Both the position numbers and the translations under genes were made by a program. DNA of 51,125 nt from Polyangiaceae bacterium (lineage in GTDB: Bacteria > Myxococcota_A > Polyangia > Polyangiales > Polyangiaceae): the NCBI GenBank assembly GCA_009780955.1, contig WQZB01000032.1, forward strand, positions 1 to 51,125. Reading direction: 5' to 3'. Shown here one piece after another: positions 1-45,057 of this stretch (position 1 is its first letter; each line of letters begins with the position of its first letter). The notes below the pieces were generated by a model that had not been told where the DNA came from, searched no databases, and saw nothing but the letters and a program-made list of their open reading frames with translations.

Positions 1-440
1 GAAAACGGCTCCCCCCTCACAGCATCCTATCGCGCCTTCGCCGCTGGCGTCGTTCACGGCGCCGGTTCGTGCCGTTGCGCCATCGGGCGTCGCGCCCACC
101 GTAGCAATGCCCGCGACGGCAGCCCCGCCAGTTCCGTCGGCACCGTCACGTGCGCCGTCGAAAACGGCTCCTCCCTCACAGCATCCTATTGCGCCTTCGC
201 CGCTGGCGTCGTTCACGGCGCCGCCGGTTCGTGCCGTTGCGCCATCGGGTGTGACGCCCACCATGGTGATGCCCGCGACGGCAGCCCCGCCAGTCCCGTC
301 GGCACCGTCACGTGCGCCGTCGAAAACGGCTCTTCCCTCACAGCATCCTATTGCGCCTTCACCGCTGGCGTCGTTCACGTCGCCGGTTCGTGCCGTTGCG
401 CCATCGGGTGTGACGCCCACCATGGTGATGCCCGTAACGA
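1..440 (+). repeat. In-frame tandem repeat, 159/162 bp period, almost three copies
   Basis: The string GAAAACGGCT recurs at 1, 160 and 322, giving periods of 159 and 162 bases (53 and 54 codons). The one-codon difference is an extra CCG in the second copy. The third copy decays after about 440. The copies are nearly identical at DNA level, which suggests recent duplication or gene conversion. The array probably continues upstream of the window. Confidence 0.9.
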
Positions 441-6798: not shown

Positions 6799-8201
6799 CC
6801 GGCCCATTGATGCGCACCTCCTTCGATCTCGGCCTCGTGCCAAAAGACGTATTTGTCATTTGCGATCGGCTGCGCGCTGCTGGCTATTGCGCATGGATTG
6901 TCGGCGGGTGCGTGCGGGATTCGCTGCTCGGCAGGGCGGTAGCGGATTGGGATGTCGCGACCGACGCACGGCCAACGGAACTCATTAAAATTTTCCCGCG
7001 AGCCATCCCAACGGGTCTAAAACACGGCACGGTCACGCTCGTGATGCGCAACCCAAACGATGCGCAAGTGCACCATTATGAAATTACCACCTTGCGCGGC
7101 GAGGGCACGTATTCCGACGGGCGAAGGCCCGATGCGGTGCACTTCGTCGACGACATTGTGCGCGATCTTTCGCGCCGTGACTTCACCATCAACGCGATGG
7201 CCGTCGACCCTTCGAGCGGCGCCATTATCGATCCGTTTGGTGGACAGGTCGATCTGGCAAGGCACCTGGTGCGTGCGGTAGGCATTGCCATCGAACGATT
7301 TTCGGAAGACGGGTTGCGCGTGCTGCGTGCTGCACGCTTTTCGGCCACGCTCGATTTCGAACTCGATCCGAATACGTTTGCGGCCATTCGGCCCACGTTG
7401 GATACGTACCGCAAAGTCAGCGCCGAGCGCGTACGCGACGAGTGGGGCAAAACGATGAAAGCAAAATTGCCTTCGCTCGGGTTTGAGATCATGCGAAAAA
7501 GTGGCATTTTGGAGATTAGCTGTCCCGAGCTACTTGAGGGCGTTGGTTGCGCACAAAACAAGCATCACTCATTCGATGTTTGGCATCACAGCATGGCCTG
7601 CATGGACGCGTGCGAAGGCGATCCGGTGCTTCGCATCGCAGCGCTTTTGCACGACGTTGGCAAGCCCAGGTCGCGAGCATTCAGCGACAAGACGCAAGAC
7701 TTTACCTTTTACGATCATGATAAAATCGGCGCCGAGATAGCCTCTGATATTGCCACGCGCTTGCGATTCTCAAACGACGAGCGCGATCGCATCGTCCTTT
7801 TGGTGCGTCATCATCTTTTCCATTACGACGCTTGGTCGGACGCTGCGGTAAGGCGGTGGATTCGCCGCGTTGGCAAAGAGCGCATTTCCGATCTTTGTGC
7901 GCTAAACGAGGCCGACTTGCGTGGCAAGGGCACAACGTTCAAAGAAAGTGAAATCAATAATTTAATGCGGCTTCGAGCGCACGTCGATAAAGTATTGGCC
8001 GAAAAAAGCGCGCTTTCGACGCGCGACCTTGCCATTGACGGCCATGTTCTTATGAGTGAACTCGGTCTTTCACCAGGGCGCATCATTGGGCAAGTGCTGA
8101 CCGAGCTTCTCGAGCTCGTCATCGCCGAGCCGTCTTTGAACACGCGGGACGCGTTGCTTGCGCGTGCCGGTGAGATTGTTCGCGCCAAAACGCATTCGTA
8201 G
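6795..8201 (+). CDS. cca: CCA tRNA nucleotidyltransferase with HD domain
   Basis: This is a class II nucleotidyltransferase that adds or repairs the tRNA 3' CCA end. The catalytic signature IVGGCVRDSLLG followed by DWDVATDARP is at residues about 34-57. The family motif RRDFTINAMAVDP follows at about 130, and an HD phosphohydrolase motif ALLHDVGKP at about 284. Length (468) fits HD-containing bacterial CCA enzymes. The GTG start overlaps the previous stop as GTGA, so translation is probably coupled; ATG 6810 is an alternative. The stop codon TAG (8199-8201) is formed by the first bases of a GTAGGGGCG palindromic element. A poly(A) polymerase role cannot be excluded from sequence alone. Confidence 0.92.
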   Translation: MTGPLMRTSFDLGLVPKDVFVICDRLRAAGYCAWIVGGCVRDSLLGRAVADWDVATDARPTELIKIFPRAIPTGLKHGTVTLVMRNPNDAQVHHYEITTLRGEGTYSDGRRPDAVHFVDDIVRDLSRRDFTINAMAVDPSSGAIIDPFGGQVDLARHLVRAVGIAIERFSEDGLRVLRAARFSATLDFELDPNTFAAIRPTLDTYRKVSAERVRDEWGKTMKAKLPSLGFEIMRKSGILEISCPELLEGVGCAQNKHHSFDVWHHSMACMDACEGDPVLRIAALLHDVGKPRSRAFSDKTQDFTFYDHDKIGAEIASDIATRLRFSNDERDRIVLLVRHHLFHYDAWSDAAVRRWIRRVGKERISDLCALNEADLRGKGTTFKESEINNLMRLRAHVDKVLAEKSALSTRDLAIDGHVLMSELGLSPGRIIGQVLTELLELVIAEPSLNTRDALLARAGEIVRAKTHS

Positions 8202-8303
8202 GGGCGTATGGCCATACGCCCCCACAATCACGCAAATTCGTAGGGGCGGCCACAGGGGGCCGCCCCTAACAAGGCGTGGGCAGACACGGGGGTCTGCCCC
8301 TAC
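8198..8303. repeat. Three tandem palindromes of the GTAGGGGCG family between convergent genes
   Basis: Almost the whole gap between cca and pgk is palindromic. First is a perfect 22-bp palindrome at 8201-8222 (half GGGGCGTATGG). Second is an 11-bp stem at 8241-8251 and 8258-8268 with a 6-base loop. Third is an 8-bp stem at 8278-8285 and 8292-8299. The outer ends read GTAGGGGCG and GCCCCTAC. Each arm could act as a strong hairpin in either transcript, so two-way termination is a reasonable guess. Confidence 0.9.
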
Positions 8304-23378: not shown

Positions 23379-24053
23379 ATGAGTCAGGGATCCGATTCCG
23401 ATCTCGATAACCGATGTGGATCGTGCGCGCGCTTTGTACGCGTGGTCGAGATCGCAAACGAGAAAGGCGAGGTCCAGCGACGTGGCGAGTGCCTTCTCGG
23501 TGCGTGGCCCGCTCTGCTTTGGGAAATGAACACTTGCTCGCACTACGTTCGGCGCGGCACTTTCACTAGCAAACCCACGGCTAGGTCGCGCGCAGCACGC
23601 TCGCGGCGTTCGCGCGCGACGTTGTCGGAATCGGCCGCGCCGGTCGCGCCAAGCGCGCATGGGCGAGTCGATTTCGAATTGCCCGAGGAGCTTTTGGACA
23701 TGAATGCAGACGAGTTTCGAGAAATCCTTCGTGATGTTTTGCGCGACGAGCTTGGCGTTTCCGATGCCTCTCTTGGCCAGCGCTGGGAAGGTGGCGAGGT
23801 CGTGTTCAAGCCGGGCAAAGAGGGTACAGCGGAAAAACGCGTTCCCATCGAAACCATCTTTTCGAAAATCGTGATGATTCGTGACAAGCTTCGCCTTCTT
23901 GAGCAGAAGGTCAATGCGCATCCAAAACTCACGGCCGAAGACAAGGTGCAAATGCAGCACTACATCACGGGGTGCTACGGATCGCTCACCACGTTCAACG
24001 TTTTGTTCGCCGACAAGGAAGATACGTTCGTGGGCCAGAAAGGCGATGGGTAG
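23379..24053 (+). CDS. Hypothetical protein with N-terminal Cys motif
   Basis: This 224-residue protein is not a family I recognise. The N-terminus has CGSCARFV, then RGECLLGAWPALLWEMNTCSHYVR, a four-Cys arrangement that could bind zinc or an iron-sulfur cluster. A basic Arg/Ser linker follows. The C-terminal 130 residues are helical (ELLDMNADEFREILRDVLR and IFSKIVMIRDKLRLLEQKV). ATG 23379 was chosen over the TTG at 23361 because the Cys motif starts just after it. Its last 8 bases overlap the redoxin-like gene. Confidence 0.8.
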   Translation: MSQGSDSDLDNRCGSCARFVRVVEIANEKGEVQRRGECLLGAWPALLWEMNTCSHYVRRGTFTSKPTARSRAARSRRSRATLSESAAPVAPSAHGRVDFELPEELLDMNADEFREILRDVLRDELGVSDASLGQRWEGGEVVFKPGKEGTAEKRVPIETIFSKIVMIRDKLRLLEQKVNAHPKLTAEDKVQMQHYITGCYGSLTTFNVLFADKEDTFVGQKGDG

Positions 24054-24603
24054 CGCGGCTAGTTCGCGCTCGCCGCGACTGCCGCGTGTCGCATTTGCAG
24101 CGCTCATGCTTTTTGCTTGTGAGCGGACCGTGGTGCAAGTCCCACCGGTTGGTGTATCTGACAAGTCTCGCGCATCGGTCCCAGACCATCGACCGGCTGT
24201 GTACGCATTCGATTCGCTCGACGATCGTCCCGTGACATCGGAAACGATGCGCGGCAAGCCCACCGTGGTCGTCTTTTTGACAACGGGCGATTTACTCGGG
24301 CAAGCTCAAATCAACTACCTCGTTGCCATGGCAAGAAACGATGGCGACAAGGTCAATTACGCGATGGTGGCGCTTCACCCGCGCAAAGAAATCGTAATTG
24401 TCGACGCTTACGCCAAGGCGCTGAACGTGAACTTTCCGGTGGCGCTCGGTGATCCGTCGTCAACGACGTCGGAGGCGGGTCCCTTCGGTGCCATCACCGC
24501 TGTGCCAACGACCATTGTGCTCGCGCGCGACGGCCACATGGTGTGGAAGCACACCGGTCTCGCGAAGAGTGAAGACATACGGGCCCACATGCAGGGATTG
24601 TAG
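24046..24603 (+). CDS. Redoxin-like lipoprotein lacking the CxxC active site
   Basis: This 185-residue protein has a basic signal and a lipobox ending FAALMLFAC. The mature part follows a TlpA/AhpC thioredoxin-like pattern: PTVVVFLTTGDLLGQAQINY, then VNYAMVALHP, PVALGDPSS, and the cis-Pro loop AVPTTIVLARDGHMVWKHTG. Where redox-active members have WCxxC this one has TTGDLLG, so it cannot do dithiol exchange and may be a binding or chaperone variant. Its stop codon TAG is the first three bases of the MITE-like element at 24601. The start ATG 24046 overlaps the previous gene by 8 bases. Confidence 0.8.
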   Translation: MGSAASSRSPRLPRVAFAALMLFACERTVVQVPPVGVSDKSRASVPDHRPAVYAFDSLDDRPVTSETMRGKPTVVVFLTTGDLLGQAQINYLVAMARNDGDKVNYAMVALHPRKEIVIVDAYAKALNVNFPVALGDPSSTTSEAGPFGAITAVPTTIVLARDGHMVWKHTGLAKSEDIRAHMQGL

Positions 24604-24727
24604 CCCGCTTTCGATTTGACGCGATCTCTTCGTTGGCGGCTGCGGTGCGGTCCTCAAAGCGCAAGGAGGCTGTTCCGGTCCGCTCCTCGCCGCCGCCTCG
24701 ATCTCGCGTCAACTTGAAAGCGGGCTA
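24601..24727. repeat. MITE-like element, copy A
   Basis: This is a 127-bp sequence with 24-bp terminal inverted repeats (left 24601-24624, starting TAGCCCGCTTTCGATTTG; right 24704-24727, ending CTTGAAAGCGGGCTA), mismatched at two positions. The GC-rich core shares long blocks with copy B at 44885 in opposite orientation. It holds no reading frame of note. It fills the gap between two convergent genes and its terminal TAGs are the stop codons of both. Confidence 0.85.
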
Positions 24728-25573
24728 GCTTGCTCGCTTGTCGATCCAGCGCGCCATGGCATCGACGATGTCCTTCCACGACGGCTCGTTCAGCACTTCG
24801 TGAAAAAGCCGTTCGCGTGCGTCCCATGTTTTGTCACGGCTGCCTGCCGCGTCGAAAAAAAGCTTGGTAGCGTGCATGCTCGCAATGCGATCTGCTTTGC
24901 CTAACGTGATGTAGAGCGGCATTGACAATCGCGAGGCTCGGGCGAATGCGTCGTGCTGCGCGGCGATGGACTCGGTAAACCACCGTGCCTTCGCGGTCTT
25001 GAAAACGAGCGGATCGCCATCGTACGCGTGTGCCTTATCAACATCGTGCGTGAGATCTTTGCCAGCAAGACCACTTGGTAGCCCAAACTTCGGCACGATG
25101 CGCGAGGCGACTTTGGCCGCCAAGAGCTTGCCTCGCGACACATCGATCGCGAGACCAAAAAATGGCGCCGAGAGCACGAGCCCACGCCAAGGAGTTGGAT
25201 CATCCAAGGCGGACATGGCGGCAACGAGCCCCCCGAAACTGTGGCCGAAAAGGAATCGTGGCGCTCCCTTTGCGCGCTCGAGGGCGAGGCTTTGAAGCTC
25301 GCGCGCATCGTCAAGAAATTCGCCAAAGCAATTGCAGAAACCGCGCGTGCCGTGGGCGCGACCATGGCCGCGCATGTCGATCATCACCGAGCCGATGCCG
25401 TGCTCGGCAAGTGCTCTCATGACGTGCGAGTAGCGTGCGCTGTGATCCGCGTAGCCATGAAGCATGGCGACGACCGCCTTGTTGGCTTCGGCTGGCATCG
25501 CGGCCGCGTAATAAAGGCGCGGACCGCTCGTTATACGCCGCGTTAGCACTCCCTCATCGAGCTCGATGTTCAT
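24725..25573 (-). CDS. Monoacylglycerol lipase / lysophospholipase-like alpha/beta hydrolase
   Basis: This 282-residue serine hydrolase cleaves monoacyl glycerolipids or related esters in its family. Visible features are VVAMLHGYADHSARY (oxyanion loop), MIDMRGHGRAHGTRGF, the nucleophile elbow LFGHSFGG (Ser 112), an acid in LGKADRIAS and the base in LFHEVLNE. No signal peptide is seen. ATG 25573 is preferred; a GTG at 25618 would add 15 residues that come from a repeat-element fragment. The stop TAG belongs to element copy A. Fragments of the same element family lie on both sides of the gene. Confidence 0.88.
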   Translation of the reverse strand: MNIELDEGVLTRRITSGPRLYYAAAMPAEANKAVVAMLHGYADHSARYSHVMRALAEHGIGSVMIDMRGHGRAHGTRGFCNCFGEFLDDARELQSLALERAKGAPRFLFGHSFGGLVAAMSALDDPTPWRGLVLSAPFFGLAIDVSRGKLLAAKVASRIVPKFGLPSGLAGKDLTHDVDKAHAYDGDPLVFKTAKARWFTESIAAQHDAFARASRLSMPLYITLGKADRIASMHATKLFFDAAGSRDKTWDARERLFHEVLNEPSWKDIVDAMARWIDKRAS

Positions 25574-25578
25574 CTTGA

Positions 25579-25609
25579 ACGCTTTCGATTTGACGCGATT
25601 TCTTCGTTG
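25579..25609 (+). repeat. MITE-like element fragment D (left end)
   Basis: GCTTTCGATTTGACGCGA followed by TTCTTCGTTG matches the left 30 bases of copy A in the same orientation. The core is missing except perhaps CTGTTCC. It lies between the divergent hydrolase and tpiA genes. Confidence 0.75.
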
Positions 25610-25641
25610 CTGTTCCACCCAATTACAGGCAAATTACATAC

Positions 25642-31846: not shown

Positions 31847-31871
31847 CGAACGAAATCGCGTCAAATCGAAC
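31847..31871 (-). repeat. MITE-like element fragment E
   Basis: AAATCGCGTCAAATCGAA matches the end of copy B. It begins at the base after the serpin stop codon and is joined directly to a GTAGGGGCG element. Only about 20 bases of the terminal repeat survive. Confidence 0.6.
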
Positions 31872-31942
31872 GTAGGGGCGCCATTCATGGCGCCCGATCG
31901 CAGGCCGATCTCGAGCGAGGGCGCGATGAATCGCGCCCCTAC
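31872..31942. repeat. Two-hairpin GTAGGGGCG element between convergent genes
   Basis: The 71-bp unit begins GTAGGGGCG and ends CGCCCCTAC. It contains two 8-bp-stem hairpins with 4-base loops: 31876-31883/31888-31895 (loop TTCA) and 31919-31926/31931-31938 (loop TGAA). The arms are reverse complements of each other except for one base pair, changed on both sides so that each hairpin still pairs. It fills the gap between the serpin and the RNA-binding protein gene. Confidence 0.9.
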
Positions 31943-31950
31943 AGTCTTAC

Positions 31951-36574: not shown

Positions 36575-38425
36575 ATGCCGACTCGCCCTGGCCCTGCCGC
36601 GCCGCTCCCCGAACGCACTCAAGCCCTTGATCGCGTCACGCCGCCTCGTTTCCTTGGCGCTCCTGGCGTAGATGCGTCGCAGACCGCGGCGTCGCAGACC
36701 GCGAATATCCGCGGTCAAAGCCCTTCGCAGCCACATTCTCCTGGCGTCGAGCAGACCGCGAATATCCGCGGTCAAAGCCCTTCGCAGCCACGGGTTGACT
36801 CGCTCGTTGGCTGCACACTCGACAATCGCTACTACATCGAGAAGCAGCTCGGTGAAGGCGGCATGGGGGTTGTCTACCGAGGCCGCCATACGCTGATCGA
36901 CAAGCGTGTTGCCATCAAAGTCTTACGGGGAGATCTCGCGGCCGACAGCGAGATGACCGAGCGCTTCTTGAATGAAGCGAAGGCCGCTTCAAGCATTGGC
37001 AACCCACACATTGTCGACATTTCCGACTTTGGGCGCATACCCGACGGGCCCGCGTACTTCGTCATGGAATTCCTCGACGGCGTGAGCTTGTCGTCACAAA
37101 TCGCGAACGGCGTTGTGCCCGTGCCGAGGATCATTCACATTGCCAAGCAAATCGGACGTGGCCTGGCCGTAGCGCATGCCATTGGCATTGTGCACCGCGA
37201 TCTCAAGCCCGATAACGTGATGCTCGTCACGCGCGGCGAAGACCGAGATTTCGCAAAGATCTTGGACTTCGGTATCGCGAAAGTCTCCGGTGACGCCCAC
37301 CGCCTCACGCGCGCTGGCAGCGTCTTCGGAACGCCCCACTACATGTCGCCAGAGCAGGCCGCCGGGGCACCGGTCGATCAGCGCACCGATATCTATGCGC
37401 TCGGCGTCATTCTGTACGAAATGGCTGTGGGCAAGGTCCCCTTCGACGCCGACAACTTCATGGGGATCCTCACTCAGCACATGTACAAGTCCCCGGCGCC
37501 GCTGCGAACCATCGTGCCGCTCCCGCAGGAGATCCCACCGGGGCTCGAGGCAATCGTTCTCAAGTGCCTCTCGAAGAAGGTCGATCTCCGCTACCAATCG
37601 ATGGAGGAGCTCGTTGCCGATCTCGAGAAGGCCGAGCGCGGTATGGTCCCCGACGCCGTTCACGAGATGATGGCTCGTTCCGCGAGCTTCAATGTTCCTG
37701 CCGACTATTTCCACGCAACGGCAAGCCGCCCTGCCGATGAATCGATCATGCAGGCCGCAGCAGCGCAGCCCGTGCGCCGGAGAACCTCCGTTTTCTGGGC
37801 CGCGATGGCGAGCATTACGGGCGTCGTGCTCGTCGTTGGGGGGATTGTCGGGGCGGTCTCTCTTCGCGCATCGCCCAAGCAGCAAAATACGCCCGGTGGT
37901 GGCGTTGTCGTCGCAACTTCGGCGTCGACGGCAGATCCCGCGGTGACGCCTCCTCCGGTGGCGACTCCCGTAGGTGTTGCCGTGACCCCGCCCGCTACAG
38001 CGGTGCCCACGGTCGAACCTACGGTGATCCCGGCAGTCGCTTCGGTGTCCACAGCCGATCCAGCGGCGGCAACGAAGGTGGGGCAGCGTGATGTAGTCAT
38101 CACGCCATCTCCCGCCGACGCGGTTGTGTGGCTTGACGACAAAAATCTTGGATCAGGCGAGCAGGTCATCCACGTTGGCCATGGCGAAACATCCACGGTC
38201 AAAGTCGAGCGCGCAGGTTACGTGTCTCGCACTGTGAAAGTGGATGGGAACAAACGCGCCGTTGCCATTCGGCTCGATCGCGAGGTGCCAAGGTTCGTGC
38301 CTGCAGTCAGGTCTCCCGCAACGAAGTCCACAGCAACGGCTGCCCCTGCCAAGTCTGCTTCGCCTGTACCGTGCTCGCTCGAGGATCGAGATCCGTTCAA
38401 TCCCCAGGTATGCAACAGGCACTGA
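36575..38425 (+). CDS. Ser/Thr protein kinase with C-terminal PEGA domain
   Basis: This 616-residue kinase has an 80-residue Pro/Ser-rich N-terminus with a duplicated QTANIRGQSPSQP. The catalytic domain (about 84-345) has QLGEGGMGVVYRG, VAIKVLRG, HRDLKPDN near 207, DFGIAKVSG and GTPHYMSPEQAAG; all catalytic residues are intact. A membrane helix at about 405-430 leads to a Val/Pro/Ala linker and a PEGA domain (about 505-568; VVITPSPADAVVWLDDKNLG), then a basic Cys-containing end. It is divergent from the lolC-like gene and its stop is 4 bases from that of the converging lipoprotein gene. Confidence 0.94.
   Translation: MPTRPGPAAPLPERTQALDRVTPPRFLGAPGVDASQTAASQTANIRGQSPSQPHSPGVEQTANIRGQSPSQPRVDSLVGCTLDNRYYIEKQLGEGGMGVVYRGRHTLIDKRVAIKVLRGDLAADSEMTERFLNEAKAASSIGNPHIVDISDFGRIPDGPAYFVMEFLDGVSLSSQIANGVVPVPRIIHIAKQIGRGLAVAHAIGIVHRDLKPDNVMLVTRGEDRDFAKILDFGIAKVSGDAHRLTRAGSVFGTPHYMSPEQAAGAPVDQRTDIYALGVILYEMAVGKVPFDADNFMGILTQHMYKSPAPLRTIVPLPQEIPPGLEAIVLKCLSKKVDLRYQSMEELVADLEKAERGMVPDAVHEMMARSASFNVPADYFHATASRPADESIMQAAAAQPVRRRTSVFWAAMASITGVVLVVGGIVGAVSLRASPKQQNTPGGGVVVATSASTADPAVTPPPVATPVGVAVTPPATAVPTVEPTVIPAVASVSTADPAAATKVGQRDVVITPSPADAVVWLDDKNLGSGEQVIHVGHGETSTVKVERAGYVSRTVKVDGNKRAVAIRLDREVPRFVPAVRSPATKSTATAAPAKSASPVPCSLEDRDPFNPQVCNRH
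36694..36791 (+). repeat. Direct 41-bp repeat with hairpin core inside the kinase gene
   Basis: The same 41 bases occur at 36694-36734 and 36751-36791, 57 bases (19 codons) apart. Each includes GACCGCGAATATCCGCGGTC, a 7-bp stem with a 6-base loop. Both copies are read in the same frame and encode QTANIRGQSPSQP. Confidence 0.9.
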
Positions 38426-41529: not shown

Positions 41530-41566
41530 CCGCGCCTCGACCTCGCGTCAACTTGAAAGCGGTCTA
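41530..41566. repeat. MITE-like element fragment C (right end)
   Basis: CGCGTCAACTTGAAAGCGG with the preceding GCCTCGACCT matches the right 37 bases of copy A. It starts at the base after the HIT stop codon. The converging minus-strand gene ends inside it, so its last codons (RPLSS, stop TGA) are element sequence. Confidence 0.85.
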
Positions 41567-43121: not shown

Positions 43122-43162
43122 TGGAGGTTACAGAATACCACAGGCCGTTTCAAAACGCATTC

Positions 43163-43249
43163 GTAGGGGCGCCATTCATGGCGCCCGCCTGCAGTATTTT
43201 GGAAACCATACCATTGATCTCCAGAGGGCGCGATGAATCGCGCCCCTAC
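43163..43249. repeat. Two-hairpin GTAGGGGCG element between DUF1385 and prfA genes
   Basis: The outer arms (43163-43186 and 43226-43249) are base-for-base the same as those at 31872, including the compensatory pair. The 39-base spacer between the arms is different and AT-richer. The last TAG of the DUF1385 gene (43246-43248 on the minus strand) is part of the GTAGGGGCG edge. Confidence 0.9.
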
Positions 43250-44580
43250 AGACCGATGTTACGAAGATGCGGTGCACTCATGAGTGCGTCGAAGCTTTGG
43301 TAATTCACGTCAGCAAGTGCAAGTGAGTCTTGCTGCGATGGAGGCGTCACCCATGTTGGCATTGTTGATGTTGCGCGCGTCGCACGCTGCTCGATGTCAT
43401 TTTCACGGAAAAGGGTGACCTGAAGTGCAGCAAGGGCCACTTCGAGCTGGTCGTCGGTTGGTTCAATGGTCGTGATCTTCTGACAAAGAAACCCTGGCCA
43501 CAAGAGCGCCCGCAAAGGACCTTGCGTGCAATGGCGCGCAAAAAAACGCTGGATTTCAAATGTTATCGCTGCGATGACTGGCAAAAAAGGCAATTTTTCG
43601 AGAAAGAACAGGACGTTGTTGAGAACGGCTTTCCCGGTTTCGATTTTTGGCAGAAAGCTTCCGATGGCCGTAAAAACGAGAATGGAGACCAACGCCACCA
43701 TGACGAGGAAGGTCGTGCCGCAACGCGGGTGGAGCGTTGACTTTGTGCGTGCATTTTCCACAGTGAGCGCTTCGTTTGCCTCGTAGGTGCTAATCGTTTT
43801 GTGCTCGGCACCGTGATACTGAAATACACGGCGGATATCTGGTAATGCGCGCCGAATGAGAGCCAAATAACCGACAACGATGACGAGCTTGAAAGCGCCC
43901 GTCATTGCCTGAAAGCCCGCCGACTGAACACCGATATTGAGCCCGAGCAGCTTCGCTGTGGCTGCCGCGGCGGCTTGCGGCAATGCGATGAGAAAACCAA
44001 TCATGAGGAGGAGCATCACAACCATTGAGCCGTTGCCTTTTGCTTTATTGGCTCCGTCCGCTCCAGCACCTGCAGTGGTTTCTGGTGTGCATTCGCTCTT
44101 CTCGAGCTCGGCATCGTTCGGTGCGCGCGCCGCGCCGTTCGCATCATTCGCGTTGGCCGCGTTGTCATCGCCAGTCGAAAGAAGCAGAAATAATGTGTAT
44201 GATGCAGCCTTTAGCAGCCCCACAACGCTTGCGCCAACACCGCCGCCACTCCGAGGCACCGTTTTTTTTGTGGCGTGATCTTCCTTGTCGAGCGCGTCGA
44301 GATCGCGTTCCATTTGCTCGGCCGAGAAGCGCAAGGCTTCGCTGCCAAGCTTGACGCTTTCAACGATTGCCATGACCCCACGCCACAACGGAAGCTTGGC
44401 CGCGCCCGTGCGCCCGTCGGCCATGGCTTTTTCGCGAACGTGCAGCGATCCATTGCGGCGTCGAACCACGACCGCGAAGGATTTGGGCGATCGCATCATG
44501 ACGCCCTCGAGCACGGCTTGCCCCCCGATGTACGGCCGATGCGGCTCCGCAGACAATGCCACTTTGCTCGGCGAATTCAC
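43246..44580 (-). CDS. DUF1385 membrane protein
   Basis: This 444-residue protein has the family start [20 protein letters not shown] and [19 protein letters not shown], then four or five membrane helices in the middle and end. [20 protein letters not shown] and [20 protein letters not shown] are the family's most conserved block. A low-complexity Ala/Asn/Asp insertion (about 145-190) makes it longer than usual. Function is unproven; genomic neighbours (rpmE and prfA) are the usual ones. The start is GTG, overlapping the rpmE stop as GTGA. It ends in a repeat-derived TAG. Confidence 0.92.
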
Positions 44581-44822: not shown

Positions 44823-44884
44823 AATCTCCCGGTCTTAGCGGAAGGGCCACGGCCCTGCAAGCACGTGAACACGAGACCGCTTTA

Positions 44885-45057
44885 CCGCTTTCAAGTTGAC
44901 GCGAGTTCAAGGCGGCGGCGAGGTGCGTGTGCTTATTATAGCACACGCACACGTCGTCGCACGGCTCCTCCAGGAGCGGACCGGAACAGCCTCTTCCGGC
45001 TTTGAGGACCGCACCGCAGCCGCCAACGCAGAAATCGCGTCAAATCGAAAGCGGTCA
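44885..45057. repeat. MITE-like element, copy B, with internal insertion
   Basis: Left terminal repeat 44885-44904 (CCGCTTTCAAGTTGACGCGA), right terminal repeat 45035-45056 (TCGCGTCAAATCGAAAGCGG). The core blocks AGCGGACCGGAACAGCCTC and TTTGAGGACCGCACCGCAGC match copy A in reverse orientation. About 51 bases between GCGGCGAGG and AGCGGACCG are absent from copy A. The ssb stop codon TGA (45055-45057) sits on its right edge. A short GACCGCTTT duplication precedes the left end. Confidence 0.85.
44923..44950. repeat. 11-bp-stem hairpin within the insertion of element copy B
   Basis: GTGCGTGTGCT, loop TATTAT, AGCACACGCAC form a perfect stem. It belongs to the roughly 51-base segment missing from copy A. 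Confidence 0.85.

What the first reader, a model, noticed from the sequence alone, without database searches (positions are those of the whole stretch)
24601..24727. One element supplies the stop codons of two convergent genes
The terminal TAG of copy A is the stop of the redoxin-like gene on the plus strand (24601-24603) and, by symmetry, of the hydrolase gene on the minus strand (24725-24727). Element ends also meet or form the stops of ssb (45055-45057), the hypothetical gene after prfA (41548-41550), cca (8199-8201) and the DUF1385 gene (43246-43248). Insertion at or into 3' ends with a ready-made stop would be nearly neutral, which may explain how the elements spread.
Basis: partly seen in the sequence, partly recalled or inferred. 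Interest (0 to 1): 0.72.

Follow-up and report, generated by a model that had tools for sequence, protein, structure and literature searches.

The report
Mobile hairpins planted on stop codons
A short mobile hairpin repeat, present in a few hundred copies in two related Labilithrix-like (Polyangiaceae) genomes, sits with one particular end exactly on the stop codons of genes far more often than chance, and mostly without changing the proteins, because the genes keep the stops they already had.

Summary
The redoxin-like and hydrolase stops flank copy A exactly; ssb's stop abuts another copy; the gene after prfA stops inside a solo end. The cca and DUF1385 stops belong to an unrelated GTAG-tagged palindrome. 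Family A has 446 terminal repeats here, 459 in a sister species and none in ten congeners. Within 60 bp of a gene's 3' end its left end lies on the stop codon in 52 of 63 cases (null 5-19%; p 7e-17 and 8.5e-13); the right end does not.

Genes carrying the element end where element-free orthologues end (8/15 identical, 11/15 within one residue; controls 63/120 and 76/120). A minority do take their stop from the element.

Sister family B suggests the mechanism: a 3-bp TNA duplication (28/47; one exact empty site) and IS5-type transposase remnants bearing its ends. Insertion into TGA or TAA duplicates the stop. Family A shows no duplication, and the excess over target preference and the orientation bias remain unexplained. 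New variant of known stop-adjacent bacterial MITE/REP repeats.

The parts
24603..24725 (+). Copy A: full-length family A element, left end at 24603, right end at 24725; terminal G's complete both TAG stops
24601..24603 (+). TAG stop of redoxin-like gene (23881-24603); same residue and codon in the element-free orthologue
24725..24727 (-). TAG stop of alpha/beta hydrolase gene (24725-25618, PF12146); end lies within the range of congener ends
44883..45056 (-). Second full copy (long class, 170 bp between CCGC ends); left end abuts ssb
45055..45057 (-). TGA stop of ssb after canonical DDEIPF; orthologue has TAG at the same residue
41533..41564 (-). Solo right-end fragment of family A
41548..41550 (-). 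TGA inside the terminal repeat used as stop by the gene after prfA; native tail replaced (ends RPLSS against SEVISPE)
25578..25609 (+). Solo left-end fragment in the hydrolase 5' region
8199..8223 (+). Unrelated GTAG-tagged palindrome supplying TAG (and THS) to cca; not family A
43224..43251 (-). Unrelated GTAG-tagged palindrome supplying TAG to the DUF1385 gene; not family A

Best explanation
Family A is a dispersed, non-autonomous palindromic insertion element (MITE-like). Many copies went into or directly against native stop codons, left end facing the gene, and such insertions leave the upstream protein unchanged. SHOWN: position on stops, orientation bias, unchanged C-termini, and in sister family B a 3-bp TNA target duplication with matching IS5-type transposase remnants. 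INFERRED: stops are hit and kept because the target includes TGA/TAA and the junction restores a stop. In B a copy of the target stands on each side (TGA|element|TGA), or TA plus the element's first G gives TAG. In A it is host T or TA plus the element's terminal GA or G. Insertions elsewhere in this roughly 90%-coding genome are mostly purged. When the abutting stop decays or is missed, a TGA 15 bases inside either terminal repeat ends the protein a few residues later. Family A's own transposase and cleavage chemistry are not known.
For: Left ends at 0-1 nt from stops: 29/35 and 23/28 in two species against at most 19% expected. Stop position unchanged relative to element-free orthologues. 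Syntenic empty sites: CAATAG|C..element..|TTATGCG against AAGTAGTTACGCG; AACTGA|element|TCATCG against AACTGATCGG. Family B: exact 3-bp repeats, nearly all TNA, in 28/47 against 6.8 expected; exact empty site with TCA duplicated; IS5-type transposase C-termini followed by B and B-variant ends in G010; homologous core with A. IS1031-group elements prefer TNA and make a 3-bp repeat (PMC12016507).
Against: No target duplication detectable in family A at any offset in 83 paired copies. The excess at stops is 4-5 times what flank preference (A) or random TNA use (B) predicts. Left-end bias at stops (A 53:8, B 29:8) is not explained by a near-symmetric target. No transposase with A's own ends was found.
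Confidence: 0.62

Rival explanations
1. One reading: the element lands near 3' ends and supplies the stop codon, so that host codons at the junction are lost or replaced.
For: The element's ends carry GA/G and an internal TGA that do complete or form stops; 19 ends in the two genomes use the internal TGA, with altered tails; 0 of 4 testable +15 cases keep the orthologue length.
Against: Abutting cases keep the orthologue end (8/15 identical, 11/15 within one residue) and mostly the same codon (11/15); redoxin TAG is identical without the element.
Confidence: 0.15
2. Functional retention: the element is kept directly after the stop in one orientation because its RNA hairpin acts as a 3'-end stabiliser or attenuator, and selection rather than insertion preference creates the pattern.
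For: Very stable single hairpin (-75 kcal/mol, z -6.65); strong orientation bias; several families with different ends share the position.
Against: Selection should not discriminate 0-1 nt from 5-20 nt after the stop; both strands fold about equally well and no T-tract follows either end.
Confidence: 0.18
3. REP/REPIN-type repeats moved by a RAYT transposase.
For: Two inverted ends forming one hairpin, hundreds of mostly extragenic copies, solo ends.
Against: No Y1_Tnp domain found in the genome; the ends lack a GTAG or CGTC tag; sister family B has TNA duplications and DDE-type partners.
Confidence: 0.05

Closest known systems
MITEs of IS5-family, IS1031-subgroup insertion sequences
   Same: Short palindromic element without genes; sister family B has 3-bp TNA duplications and shares its ends with IS5-type transposase remnants
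   Different: Family A itself shows no duplication and no transposase with its own ends was found; placement on stop codons is not part of that family's description
GTAG-tagged REP repeats (PMC3733652)
   Same: Located mostly downstream of genes; [quoted passage not shown]
   Different: Family A is a 123-bp element with long terminal repeats, no GTAG tag, and the stops it abuts are native and of all three kinds
YPAL / RU-2 of Yersinia
   Same: About 168-bp hairpin elements with filled and empty sites; recalled from the 2006 abstract as inserted closely downstream of stop codons (not read here)
   Different: YPAL duplications vary from 3 to 26 bp and its inverted repeats are internal (PMC2229807); exact abutment of one defined end is not described in what I could read
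MIRU of mycobacteria
   Same: Mobile repeat inserted at translation signals with little effect on the gene (PMC12548453)
   Different: MIRUs couple an internal ORF to the next gene's start; no overlap of the right end with start codons was seen here
ERIC / RU-1
   Same: Similar size (127 bp), one long hairpin, hundreds of kilobases between copies, extragenic
   Different: Different sequence; terminal TA and target duplication are reported for ERIC (PMC2229807) and not found for family A

Membership tests
MITE (general) | short, no coding capacity, terminal inverted repeats, many copies | tested here: met
   119/168-bp classes with about 20-bp imperfect terminal repeats, 446 terminal matches
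MITE (general) | target site duplication | tested here: not met
   family A: none in 83 paired copies; family B: met
MITE (general) | partner transposase with the same ends | tested here: inconclusive
   found for B and a B variant in G010; not found for A
IS1031-subgroup MITE | 3-bp TNA duplication | tested here: not met
   not seen for family A; met for B
REPIN/RAYT | RAYT (Y1_Tnp) gene in the genome | tested here: not met
   PF01797 search of own genome, no match while controls ring
GTAG/CGTC REP | GTAG or CGTC tag at the foot of a 20-40 bp palindrome | tested here: not met
   family A ends GACCGC/GCGGTC; met for the GTAGGGGCG repeat at cca and DUF1385
MIRU | end overlapping the start codon of the next gene | tested here: not met
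   distances from right end to next start scattered, mostly 7 nt or more
ERIC | TA target duplication | tested here: not met
   no 2-bp repeat enriched at any offset
YPAL | duplications of 3-26 bp, internal inverted repeats | tested here: not met
   no longer duplication found; inverted repeats are terminal

The most novel reading that the evidence does not exclude
Insertion is directed to gene ends as such: one defined end is placed 0-1 nt from any of the three stop codons by a mechanism that senses the transcript or translation termination rather than a DNA motif.
Probability: 0.12. Interest if true: 0.85.

Novelty: new variant of a known kind. Interest (0 to 1): 0.55.

Why it matters
It gives a concrete, countable case of how a mobile repeat can colonise a compact genome (about 90% coding) at almost no cost, by using the one place in a gene where duplicating or completing the target restores the signal. 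Two species carry the family, and the compared sites show copies present in one and absent in the other, so target choice, selection and function can be separated by comparing filled and empty sites. It also warns that stop codons touching repeats should not be read as repeat-made without an orthologue check.

Tried and rejected
RAYT/REPIN origin: no Y1_Tnp gene. Target duplication in family A: none at any offset tested, longer and one-mismatch repeats included. Autonomous copy of A by spacing of its ends: none convincing. Rfam: no match in the window. Intrinsic terminator: no T-tract after either end. Gene-caller artefact or systematic truncation at the element: rejected by orthologue ends. 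MIRU-like overlap with start codons: rejected. A copies inside other repeats, to get an exact empty site: none found; one B copy was.

Full report
CHECKING THE OBSERVATION. The sequence reads as described: TAG 24601-24603 ends the plus-strand ORF 23881-24603, and TAG at 24725-24727 on the minus strand ends the hydrolase ORF (PF12146). The repeat between them matches at least 40 places of the same genome at 91% identity or more. Its terminal repeat occurs 446 times with up to 2 mismatches and never in the reversed control. In 1.21 Mb I found 51 paired copies, mainly 119 or 168 bp between the CCGC ends, and 50 solo ends. The two ends differ: left CCGCTTTCGATTTG, right CCGCTTTCAAGTTG. The first base outside the core covaries as a pair (68 of 83 complementary, z = 14) and the second is complementary in 59 of 83. 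So the element is GACCGC...GCGGTC, with a GC...GC variant in copy A (24603-24725), and only the G of each TAG is inside it. The finding's gene list mixes two elements: cca and DUF1385 end in a GTAG-tagged palindrome of another family.

IS IT MORE THAN CHANCE? I called genes with a codon-usage model (987 genes, 90% coding; stop counts) and measured the stop position relative to each element end. In this genome 16 left ends have the stop at offset 0 (stop|CCGC) and 14 at -1 (stop plus one base, mostly TAG), of 53 left ends facing a gene end; right ends give 4 of 35. In the sister species G010 the numbers are 19 + 4 of 38, and 4 of 25. Within 60 bp of a stop, 29/35 and 23/28 left ends lie at 0-1 nt. 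Expected fractions are 5% (flat), 9-10% (T/TA preference) or 18-19% (full flank preference taken from copies not at stops); p = 7e-17 and 8.5e-13 under the strictest null. Right ends are not enriched under that null. TGA, TAG and TAA stops are all used. In the orthologous sites compared, A copies of one species were as a rule absent from the other; one reciprocal pair holds A in one species and B in the other, and one weaker pair (43% identity) carries A at both stops.

DOES THE ELEMENT SUPPLY THE STOP? Redoxin: G010 ends ...HMRGL-TAG and continues CCAGCCGG with no element; several congeners end at the same GL. ssb: both species end DDEIPF, with TGA here and TAG in G010. The hydrolase end falls within the range of eight congeners. 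Systematically, over reciprocal best pairs of at least 55% identity, genes with an abutting A element differ from the element-free partner by 0 residues in 8/15 and by at most 1 in 11/15; pairs without elements give 63/120 and 76/120; 11/15 pairs have the same stop codon against 65/120 in controls. So the stop position is native. Two caveats. The final G or GA of the stop coincides with the element's own terminal bases, so those bases may physically be the element's. And a minority class ends at the TGA inside the terminal repeat (+15), with native tails replaced by PLSI/PPSI/PLSS-type residues (0 of 4 testable cases unchanged). The gene after prfA belongs to that class. cca ends in AAA-ACG-CAT-TCG-TAG-GGGCG; the same AAAACGCATTCGTAGGGGCG stands in an intergenic copy at 43151-43170, so Thr-His-Ser-stop comes from the GTAG repeat, two or three residues beyond the probable native end.

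WHAT IT IS. A search for words enriched directly after stops revealed further families with other ends but a similar core. The largest, family B (GAGC[A/G]TGTTTACCAGCC...), shows exact 3-bp repeats, nearly all TNA, in 28 of 47 copies against 6.8 expected. One copy sits inside another repeat whose empty form is present elsewhere, which proves a TCA duplication. In G010, IS5-type transposase C-termini are followed by CCTGGTAAACATGCTC or CTGTCGAACACGCTC, the ends of B and of a B variant. PMC12016507 states that IS1031-group elements prefer 5'-TNA and make a 3-bp repeat. TNA covers TGA and TAA, so insertion into such a stop leaves TGA|element|TGA and an intact gene; at TTAG the duplicated TTA plus the element's first G rebuilds TAG. 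B ends lie at stops in 13/37 and 24/90 noncoding cases, against 7-8% expected from random TNA use. For A no duplication is visible. Syntenic empty sites show A inserted at the stop with little or nothing lost (TAG|TTA; TGA|TCGG; TGA|ATTATG).

MECHANISM AND RIVALS. Most likely, related DDE-type MITEs use short T-rich targets that coincide with stop codons, the junction restores a stop, and insertions elsewhere are removed because 90% of the genome is coding. This leaves a four- to fivefold excess and the left-end bias unexplained. Selection for a 3' hairpin in one orientation, or true targeting of gene ends, could account for them. The A hairpin is very stable, but both strands fold alike and no T-tract follows, so the functional rival gets 0.18.

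COMPARISON AND NOVELTY. GTAG REPs are reported to provide TAG stops (PMC3733652), MIRUs to insert at translation signals (PMC12548453), and YPAL is recalled as lying just downstream of stops (the 2006 paper was not available; YPAL features from PMC2229807). The new points are exact abutment of one defined end, use of all three stop codons, protein ends unchanged by direct comparison, and a sister family whose TNA duplication explains how a stop can be entered without loss. I class this as a new variant of a known kind. The host is a Labilithrix-like member of the Polyangiaceae: the G010 contig of 131,170 bases matches WQYX01000002.1, Emb289P4bin34. Ten other congeners, 6.6 to 11.9 Mb, lack both families.

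LIMITS. Gene calls are my own; about 29% and 16% of the two genomes were analysed; the assemblies break at these repeats; cells in the statistics are copies, not proven independent insertions; there are no expression or transposition data.

Noticed in passing
G010 loci L163, L165, L166; G000:C37:1-102 (L201): IS5-type transposase fragments lie at contig ends, and the G010 ones carry family B-like ends; the assemblies seem to break inside a multi-copy IS.
   Followed up: partly
G010 L105-L144 and G000 L045-L104: Several further palindrome families with different ends (GAGCGTGTT, GAGCGAGTTC, AACGCGTTTG, CTACTGCCG) also start at or within 2 nt of stop codons.
   Followed up: partly
window 8199, 31871-31944, 43162-43251; 225 TAGGGGC sites in 1.21 Mb: A GTAG-tagged palindrome is common in this genome (21 of 225 TAGGGGC sites are in-frame stops) but rare in the sister species (29 sites, none a stop), although no Y1_Tnp gene was found here.
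   Followed up: partly
genomes G000 and G010 against ten congeners: The two repeat-rich species have the smallest genomes of the genus sample (4.2 and 4.8 Mb against 6.6-11.9 Mb); repeat expansion may go with genome reduction.
   Followed up: no
window 1-439 and 36694-36791: Tandem repeats: 159/162-bp units at the window start, and two identical 41-bp copies spaced 57 bp apart.
   Followed up: no
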